NCBI GenBank assembly: GCA_017860985.1
Contig: JAGFXG010000016.1
Coordinates: 1 to 11,262 of the forward strand
Direction: 5' to 3'
Source of the DNA: Deltaproteobacteria bacterium
Lineage (GTDB): Bacteria > Desulfobacterota > Syntrophia > Syntrophales > Smithellaceae
DNA length: 11,262 nucleotides
Every line of letters begins with the position of its first letter. The stretch's first letter is position 1. A model generated the notes under the pieces. That model was given only the letters and a program-made list of their open reading frames with translations, was not told the origin of the DNA and searched no databases. Both the position numbers and the translations under genes were made by a program. Shown piece by piece: positions 2,736-2,974 of this stretch.

Positions 2736-2764
2736 TTGACAGGCCGGCAACTCCATTGTATGAA
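2736..2764 (+). promoter_or_regulatory. Sigma70-type promoter of the pyr operon
   Basis: A perfect -35 hexamer TTGACA (2736-2741), a 17-base spacer and TATGAA (2759-2764, four of six matches to TATAAT) lie just after lepB. Transcription would start near 2770-2772, giving a leader of about 200 bases before pyrR that contains the attenuator described next. The position upstream of the terminator at 2847-2879 is what makes that terminator look regulatory rather than simply the end of lepB. Confidence 0.7.
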
Positions 2765-2776
2765 CCACACAAATAC

Positions 2777-2809
2777 CCTTTTAATTTAATCCGGCGAGAT
2801 TGAAAAAGG
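2777..2809 (+). promoter_or_regulatory. PyrR-binding loop (anti-antiterminator hairpin) of a pyr attenuator
   Basis: The segment 2788-2801 reads AATCCGGCGAGATT. Against the PyrR-site consensus ARUCCNGNGAGGYU from Gram-positive pyr leaders (recalled, not looked up) it agrees at 13 of 14 positions. The one difference (A at 2799 for G) turns the usual U·G pair into U-A, so the fold is kept. The hairpin has an upper stem UUAAUC/GAUUGA (2786-2791 with 2798-2803), the hexaloop CGGCGA (2792-2797, the CNGNGA form), a bulge AAU on the 5' side (2783-2785), and a lower stem CCUUUU/AAAAGG (2777-2782 with 2804-2809). This is the layout of known PyrR sites. The 3' half GAUUGA can instead pair with UCAAUC at 2839-2844, and GGC (2793-2795) with GCC (2848-2850), which would block the terminator. 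PyrR with UMP should favour this hairpin and so termination. Confidence 0.75.
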
Positions 2810-2817
2810 AAAAACCA

Positions 2818-2883
2818 ATGAAAAAGATCAGCATAAAGTCAATCGGGGCCTTTCTCCTTACGGGGAAAGGCCTTTTTTTATGA
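2818..2883 (+). CDS. Possible leader peptide overlapping the pyr terminator
   Basis: A 21-codon ORF beginning [10 protein letters not shown] opens at ATG 2818, seven bases after AAAAAGGA (2803-2810), a fair Shine-Dalgarno sequence. It runs through both arms of the terminator hairpin and ends at TGA 2881-2883, just past the U-tract. It is too short for coding statistics, and nothing in the peptide resembles a known family. If translated, a ribosome following RNA polymerase closely would keep the terminator from folding, as in the pyrBI leader of E. coli. The ribosome-binding site lies in the 3' strand of the PyrR hairpin, so PyrR binding would also hide it. The ORF could equally be accidental, given the A-rich sequence. 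It is listed because the RBS, start and stop positions together are suggestive. Confidence 0.35.
2847..2879 (+). terminator. Intrinsic terminator in the pyrR leader (attenuator)
   Basis: The stem is GGCCTTTCTCC (2847-2857) with GGGGAAAGGCC (2862-2872): eleven pairs including one G·U, loop TTAC, followed by seven T (2873-2879). It lies between the pyr promoter and pyrR, and its 5' arm overlaps the right half of the possible antiterminator, so it should be conditional. It could also end read-through transcripts from lepB. Confidence 0.88.
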
Positions 2884-2963
2884 CTGCTTGCGTATTTTGA
2901 ACCGATTGGTACCGGAATTATTCGAAAAAACTGAATGTCATTTAAGAATTTTAAAAACTCGTC

Positions 2964-2970
2964 GAGAGGG
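2964..2970 (+). promoter_or_regulatory. Ribosome-binding site fixing the pyrR start
   Basis: GAGAGGG lies four to five bases before ATG 2975. It favours this ATG over a TTG at 2888 in the same frame, which would add 29 residues that do not resemble PyrR and has no Shine-Dalgarno sequence at a suitable distance. Confidence 0.75.
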
Positions 2971-2974
2971 AAAC

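What the first reader, a model, noticed from the sequence alone, without database searches (positions are those of the whole stretch)
2736..2974. Apparent PyrR/UMP-controlled transcription attenuator in a Gram-negative-type genome
Seen: a promoter (2736-2764), a hairpin with hexaloop CGGCGA matching the PyrR-site consensus at 13 of 14 positions (2788-2801), a 5'-side bulge and lower stem, a strong terminator (2847-2879), and a competing pairing GAUUGA (2798-2803) with UCAAUC (2839-2844) plus GGC (2793-2795) with GCC (2848-2850). UUAAUC (2786-2791) and UCAAUC (2839-2844) are near-copies that compete for the same partner, as expected for a switch. Known: PyrR attenuation of this kind is best documented in Bacillus and other Gram-positive bacteria, while many proteobacterial PyrR proteins are not known to bind RNA. 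Inference: PyrR encoded just downstream represses its own operon when UMP is high.
Basis: partly seen in the sequence, partly recalled or inferred. Interest (0 to 1): 0.75.

Follow-up and report, generated by a model that had tools for sequence, protein, structure and literature searches.

The report
Pyrimidine switch gated by translation
In this Gram-negative bacterium an RNA hairpin that looks like the binding site of the pyrimidine sensor PyrR appears to hide the ribosome-binding site of a tiny leader gene, so that a translating ribosome, rather than an alternative RNA fold as in Bacillus, would decide whether the pyrimidine genes are read.

Summary
In detail: promoter, hexaloop hairpin and terminator lie as stated before pyrR-pyrB-pyrC, and Rfam's PyrR-site model covers 2773-2880 (53.5 bits, gathering 54, E 2.8e-5). 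It is common in the lineage (inferred Smithellaceae/Syntrophales): 99 of 155 genomes of the order match at E<=0.1. A PyrR/UMP attenuator is very likely, but the proposed RNA antiterminator is weak here (predicted switch index 0.02) and its UCAAU core is in 7 of 16 genus leaders. Such an ORF is in 42 of 42 analysed family leaders (8.6 expected) but near chance in Firmicutes (14 of 89, 10.1 expected); an RNA switch is predicted in 67 of 85 Firmicutes and 2 of 42 family leaders. Best reading: PyrR-UMP blocks leader translation, and without the ribosome the terminator forms. This resembles a model that I recall for Thermus ZO5. No experiment backs it yet.

The parts
2736..2764 (+). sigma70-type promoter, TTGACA-17-TATGAA
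   Evidence: TTGACA in the best fit of 42 of 42 family leaders, 41 of 42 score >=9 of 12, 4.4 expected; not reported by the stricter scan
2777..2809 (+). PyrR-site hairpin: lower stem 2777-2781/2805-2809, 5' bulge 2782-2784, upper stem 2785-2791/2798-2804, loop CGGCGA 2792-2797
   Evidence: RF00515 match 2773-2880; in the MFE of 2771-2812, 2771-2838 and 2771-2858; compensatory pairs
2806..2810 (+). Shine-Dalgarno AAGGA, four of its five bases in the 3' arm of the PyrR hairpin
   Evidence: 2806-2809 predicted 0.94-0.98 paired; the anti-SD is recalled, not tested
2818..2883 (+). leader ORF, 21 codons and TGA ([21 protein letters not shown]), crossing the terminator stem
   Evidence: equivalent ORF in 42 of 42 family leaders, 8.6 expected
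2845..2880 (+). intrinsic terminator, stem 2845-2874 and T tail
   Evidence: -21.7 kcal/mol
2975..3523 (+). pyrR (PyrR regulator / uracil phosphoribosyltransferase)
   Evidence: NF003549 250.5 bits; closest solved structures are PyrR, e.g. 4p81, 1a3c
3644..4573 (+). pyrB, aspartate carbamoyltransferase
4570..5853 (+). pyrC, dihydroorotase, overlapping pyrB by 4 nt

Best explanation
A PyrR/UMP-controlled, translation-coupled transcription attenuator of pyrR-pyrB-pyrC. Transcription starts near 2771 (inferred from the promoter). With little UMP, PyrR is off the RNA, a ribosome loads on AAGGA 2806-2810, starts at ATG 2818 and translates across 2845-2874, so the terminator cannot fold and RNA polymerase goes on into the operon. 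With much UMP, PyrR-UMP clamps the hairpin 2777-2809, the Shine-Dalgarno stays hidden, no ribosome follows the polymerase and the terminator forms. Shown by sequence and comparison: hairpin, SD in its arm, ORF, terminator, operon, and retention of the ORF while linker, reading frame and peptide change. Inferred: PyrR binding, UMP as effector, ribosome as antiterminator.
For: Strict rule (ATG 4-12 nt after the AAGG arm, frame open to within 12 nt of the terminator), observed and expected: family 42 of 42 (8.6), rest of the order 24 of 49 (9.3), other phylum members 17 of 29 (6.4), named deltas 8 of 27 (5.3), other phyla or unplaced 6 of 11 (1.1), Firmicutes 14 of 89 (10.1). Wider, post-hoc rule (ATG/GTG at -2..12): 42/42 (14.7), 48/49 (20.4), 26/29 (13.0), 25/27 (13.2), 9/11 (2.3), Firmicutes 35/89 (25.3). 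By lineage: strict 30 of 50 genera and 17 of 29 families, wide 47 of 50 and 26 of 29. In the family the ATG frame stays open to 6 nt inside the stem in 39 of 42, the other frames in 18 and 23 (P 1e-6, 1e-4); the stem is met in all three frames (18, 12, 12) and no stop lies more than 2 nt before the stem, so the act of translation rather than the peptide is kept. Linkers share 43% mean ungapped identity. Switch index >0.2: family 2 of 42, rest of order 5 of 49, other phylum 0 of 25, named deltas 4 of 27, other phyla 1 of 11, Firmicutes 67 of 85. PyrR starts within 400 nt downstream in 146 of 147 delta-type leaders. The residue aligned with R146 of B. subtilis PyrR (numbering recalled) is R in 128 and K in 6 of 134 site-bearing delta PyrRs, but R in 6 of 27 site-less PyrRs of the phylum.
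Against: No expression, binding or ribosome data. Named deltas alone do not pass the strict rule (P 0.1), and the wider rule that rescues them was made after looking; for its added starts (-2..+3) the start's frame is not the most open one in group C (10, 10, 11 of 15), though it is in D (20, 12, 16 of 23) and B (15, 10, 13 of 17) (before full deduplication). Open only to 12 nt before the stem, the family's three frames differ little (42, 34, 39 of 42). Firmicutes also rise a little under the wider rule (P 0.01), and Firmicutes leaders without a predicted switch do not have an ORF instead (wide rule 2 of 18). Leaders are related by descent, so tail probabilities overstate independence. The hairpin alone is predicted to hide the SD, so the ribosome must compete even without PyrR. 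The H22 equivalent, recalled as an RNA contact, is Y in 40 of 40 family PyrRs. The Rfam score is 0.5 bit under the gathering score.
Confidence: 0.8

Rival explanations
1. Bacillus-type attenuator: without PyrR-UMP, GAUUGA/UCAAUC and GGC/GCC pair, sequestering the terminator's 5' side; PyrR-UMP stabilises the hairpin as anti-antiterminator. No translation needed.
For: The pairing exists and is strong for its composition (z -4.0); -8.6 kcal/mol against -7.7 for the hairpin as isolated elements.
Against: Less stable than the hairpin state in the nascent RNA (-9.8 vs -11.7); switch index 0.02; UCAAU core in 7 of 16 genus leaders; 2 of 42 family leaders show a predicted switch against 67 of 85 Firmicutes.
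Confidence: 0.1
2. A sub-case of the best explanation: in this subclade the pairing opens the hairpin and so exposes the Shine-Dalgarno, helping the ribosome, which is still the antiterminator.
For: The UCAAU core is in seven genus leaders that also keep the ORF.
Against: The seven may be close relatives (not tested); switch index between -0.0 and 0.05 in all seven.
Confidence: 0.2
3. UTP-sensing leader attenuation as in enterobacterial pyrBI (recalled): the leader ORF is coupled to polymerase pausing, and PyrR is only an enzyme.
For: ORF overlapping a terminator in front of pyr genes.
Against: The PyrR-site hairpin is kept with compensatory changes and keeps company with R146 in PyrR; pausing was not tested.
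Confidence: 0.04
4. Plain constitutive terminator after lepB with chance similarity to a PyrR site.
For: lepB ends just upstream; the terminator scan finds 0.5 such sites in shuffles.
Against: Promoter, hairpin and ORF in 42 of 42 analysed family leaders; RF00515 E 2.8e-5.
Confidence: 0.01

Closest known systems
Thermus strain ZO5 pyr operon, proposed PyrR-controlled coupled transcription-translation attenuation (Van de Casteele et al. 1997; recalled; nothing of it seen, its recalled PubMed id is not held)
   Same: As I recall it: PyrR site over the ribosome-binding site of a leader peptide whose ORF overlaps the terminator.
   Different: Another phylum; here comparative evidence from many lineages. 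No Thermus leader was compared; the only Thermus result is that the Thermus composti control genome rings for RF00515.
Bacillus subtilis PyrR attenuators (Rfam RF00515)
   Same: Hexaloop hairpin, terminator, pyr genes; PMC4347634 (passages) describes PyrR stabilising an anti-antiterminator.
   Different: No supported RNA antiterminator here; a leader ORF takes its place.
Enterobacterial pyrBI attenuator (recalled)
   Same: Translation of a leader ORF overlapping the terminator allows read-through.
   Different: Sensor is polymerase pausing on UTP, no PyrR site.
Mycobacterium smegmatis PyrR-dependent translational repression (Fields and Switzer 2007; only the title seen, as a reference in PMC13328217)
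   Same: PyrR blocks ribosome loading (recalled).
   Different: There it acts on the regulated gene itself (recalled); here on a leader ORF, the site ending 165 nt before pyrR, converted into termination.

Membership tests
Rfam RF00515 PyrR binding site | score at or above the curated gathering score | tested here: inconclusive
   window 53.5 of 54 bits, E 2.8e-5; 27 of 155 genomes of the order pass, 7 of them of the same genus
Rfam RF00515 PyrR binding site | hairpin with conserved hexaloop and covarying stem | tested here: met
Bacillus-type PyrR attenuator | terminator between the PyrR site and pyr genes | tested here: met
Bacillus-type PyrR attenuator | RNA antiterminator mutually exclusive with the PyrR hairpin | tested here: not met
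   predicted index 0.02 in window, >0.2 in 2 of 42 family leaders, 67 of 85 Firmicutes
Bacillus-type PyrR attenuator | UMP-dependent PyrR binding to the leader | not testable with these tools
   needs a binding assay
Thermus-type coupled PyrR attenuation | leader ORF overlapping the terminator with its RBS in the PyrR site | tested here: met
   (definition recalled)
Thermus-type coupled PyrR attenuation | leader translation needed for read-through | not testable with these tools
   needs reporter mutants
Thermus-type coupled PyrR attenuation | sequence-level match to Thermus leaders | not tested
   no Thermus leader sequence obtained
Mycobacterial PyrR translational repression | PyrR site over the RBS of the regulated gene itself (recalled) | tested here: not met
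   site ends 165 nt before pyrR with a terminator between
Enterobacterial pyrBI attenuation | UTP-sensitive pausing (recalled) | not testable with these tools
   needs in vitro transcription

The most novel reading that the evidence does not exclude
PyrR attenuators fall into two designs: Firmicutes use an RNA antiterminator, while Desulfobacterota-type bacteria and some other phyla use a translating ribosome, PyrR acting as gatekeeper of a leader start site. In some leaders (Geobacter-type among the named ones) the start codon itself (GTG or ATG at the last bases of the AAAGG arm, with GAGG of the loop as possible SD) may lie inside the PyrR hairpin; this last part has only weak frame support.
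Probability: 0.65. Interest if true: 0.6.

Novelty: new variant of a known kind. Interest (0 to 1): 0.48.

Why it matters
A 2026 review ties PyrR/UMP control to Gram-positives and says that Gram-negatives more commonly use other mechanisms (PMC13328217, passages). The data here suggest that PyrR attenuation is common in a Gram-negative order (99 of 155 genomes at E<=0.1) and works through translation, which makes a direct, cheap test possible (one start-codon mutation), and that one RNA-protein module has been wired to two different antiterminators. If the Thermus model is as I recall it, the case is a new member of that subtype and adds comparative support to it.

Tried and rejected
Rejected: chance hairpin; Bacillus-type antiterminator as the main device. 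Two measures did not discriminate: median cost of forming the hairpin, 0.19 in the family and 0.29 in Firmicutes, and the duplex of hairpin arm with linker (median z -0.25 in the family, +0.34 in Firmicutes; 13 of 42 and 23 of 85 in the best tenth of shuffles, so some pairing is enriched in both). A first count contained duplicate leaders in the named groups; one search removed 17 and is the one cited for counts, repeats the switch index on that set; the residue counts still use the older group lists. Left out: 15 leaders without a terminator by my finder (12 Firmicutes, 2 other phyla, 1 delta), 6 with linkers under 12 nt, and loci whose hairpin my pattern missed or with too little sequence after it (of 43 family matches one, L043, is not in the set). 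Order matches with E above about 0.004 were mostly not fetched. One search skipped 4 leaders of group C and 4 Firmicutes with fewer than four upper-stem pairs. Site-less PyrRs (27): 20 picked by me from the 207 of 247 genomes with PyrR, 7 from its 30 loci, none with an RF00515 match next to pyrR (one, G206, had a weak match elsewhere); for L307 the upstream stretch read was only 10 nt. 43 of 51 family genomes matched RF00515 (my count); why 8 did not was not followed. Literature: nine searches; among the titles and abstract openings listed I saw none on a leader ORF in PyrR attenuators. Several lists were capped (e.g. 20 of 1,436, 15 of 6,001), only four papers were opened, in passages, and most subscription journals are not held, so this is no proof of absence.

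Full report
WHAT IS THERE. The window carries the end of secD (by recall), secF, a DUF456-like gene (by recall; no NCBIfam match), lepB, then pyrR-pyrB-pyrC, recO, a TrhP/U32-peptidase-like gene, and ompA-like and kefC-like genes (the last three have no equivalog match over its curated cut-off). Rfam's PyrR-site model spans 2773-2880 at 53.5 bits, E 2.8e-5, half a bit under its gathering score, and nothing else in the own genome (67.6% complete) comes near.

WHERE IT COMES FROM. So the source is inferred to be a Smithellaceae/Syntrophales member. The motif is common there: 99 of 155 genomes of the order match at E<=0.1 (27 over the cut-off), and 60 of 247 of the phylum (12 over the cut-off), while PyrR itself is in 207 of 247. 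Weak matches may be chance; of the 147 unique delta-type leaders that I analysed, 146 have PyrR starting within 400 nt downstream.

THE LEADER ORF. AAGGA at 2806-2810 lies (but for its last base) in the 3' arm of the hairpin's lower stem, 7 nt before ATG 2818. The ORF has 21 codons, reads through the terminator stem and stops at 2881-2883. To ask whether this is chance, I collected 268 unique leaders (17 duplicates dropped), used 247, and asked for an ATG 4-12 nt after the AAGG arm whose frame stays open to within 12 nt of the terminator, against dinucleotide shuffles of the linker. Window's family: 42 of 42, 8.6 expected. Rest of the order: 24 of 49 (9.3). Other phylum members: 17 of 29 (6.4). 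Named delta records: 8 of 27 (5.3, not significant). Other phyla or unplaced: 6 of 11 (1.1). Firmicutes: 14 of 89 (10.1, not significant). Looking at the misses showed starts closer to or inside the arm; with ATG/GTG at -2..12 the figures are 42/42, 48/49, 26/29, 25/27, 9/11 and, for Firmicutes, 35/89 (25.3 expected, P 0.01). This wider rule is post hoc, and its added starts have a frame preference in two of three delta groups only. By lineage the strict rule holds in 30 of 50 genera and 17 of 29 families, the wide one in 47 and 26.

WHY TRANSLATION AND NOT THE PEPTIDE. In the family the ATG sits 8 nt after the arm in 36 of 42; its frame is open to 6 nt inside the stem in 39 of 42, the other two frames in 18 and 23; the terminator is met in all three frames (18, 12, 12); the stop lies between 2 nt before the stem's start and 174 nt after it. 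Linkers are otherwise diverged (mean ungapped identity 0.43). What is kept is that a ribosome would sit on the terminator.

THE RNA ANTITERMINATOR. I measured how much pairing of the terminator's 5' arm with upstream RNA drops when the PyrR hairpin is enforced. Firmicutes: mean 0.343 (shuffled linkers 0.127), 67 of 85 above 0.2. Window's family: 0.036 (0.052), 2 of 42. Rest of the order 5 of 49, other phylum 0 of 25, named deltas 4 of 27, other phyla 1 of 11. Window: 0.02. So the measure detects a switch in Firmicutes and hardly any here. Two cruder measures did not separate the groups.

THE PROTEIN. The window's PyrR is a normal member of its family (PDB relatives 4p81, 1a3c). Of the residues that I recall as RNA contacts in B. 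subtilis, those aligned with T18, R19, H140, R141, R146 and K152 are the same in the window, R27 is K, and H22 is Y, as in 40 of 40 family members. The R146 equivalent is R in 128 and K in 6 of 134 site-bearing delta PyrRs with a letter there (13 gapped rows left out), but R in 6 of 27 site-less ones, Q in 15. This co-retention supports that the RNA is the protein's ligand, with the caveat of shared descent and of hand-picked site-less rows.

MECHANISM. Best: PyrR-UMP holds the hairpin shut over the Shine-Dalgarno; without PyrR-UMP a ribosome translates the leader across the terminator and lets transcription through. Anatomy and its conservation are shown; binding, effector and the ribosome's role are inferred. 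Probability 0.8 for this mechanism; about 0.95 that it is PyrR attenuation of some kind.

WHAT IS KNOWN. Papers seen in passages only: PMC3766115 analysed Rfam motifs including PyrR in 255 genomes, with Desulfovibrionales as the delta lineage in its table; PMC4347634 gives the Bacillus antiterminator model; PMC13328217 assigns PyrR to Gram-positives; PMC2965389 treats attenuators and leader peptides in general and mentions PyrR in passing. The Thermus ZO5 model, recalled, is the closest precedent; I could not obtain its text or sequence.

Noticed in passing
L011, L032, L034, L078, L138, L142, L158 and similar leaders, first bases after the AAAGG arm: A GTG or ATG start codon overlaps or abuts the end of the PyrR hairpin, with GAGG of the hexaloop's 3' side as a possible Shine-Dalgarno: the whole initiation site would be inside the PyrR element. 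Named examples are Geobacter or unclassified Deltaproteobacteria.
   Followed up: partly
L240: The leader ORF appears to run in frame into pyrR without a stop, so a longer fused PyrR may be made.
   Followed up: no
PyrR proteins of site-less genomes, L260, L268, L275, L279, L281-L283, L288-L307: The position of B. subtilis R146 (numbering recalled) is Q, E, M or A in 21 of 27; these PyrRs may have lost RNA binding or regulate differently.
   Followed up: partly
window 2975-3523 and family PyrRs: The H22 equivalent is tyrosine in 40 of 40 family members and 43 of 47 other members of the order.
   Followed up: no
window 7866-7909: Strong G-C-rich hairpin flanked by A and T runs between the convergent U32-peptidase-like and ompA-like genes, probably a bidirectional terminator (sub-threshold Rfam matches there).
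   Followed up: no
G300, G304, G307, G310, G275, G282, G287, G290: Eight family genomes gave no RF00515 match; missing sequence or loss was not examined.
   Followed up: no
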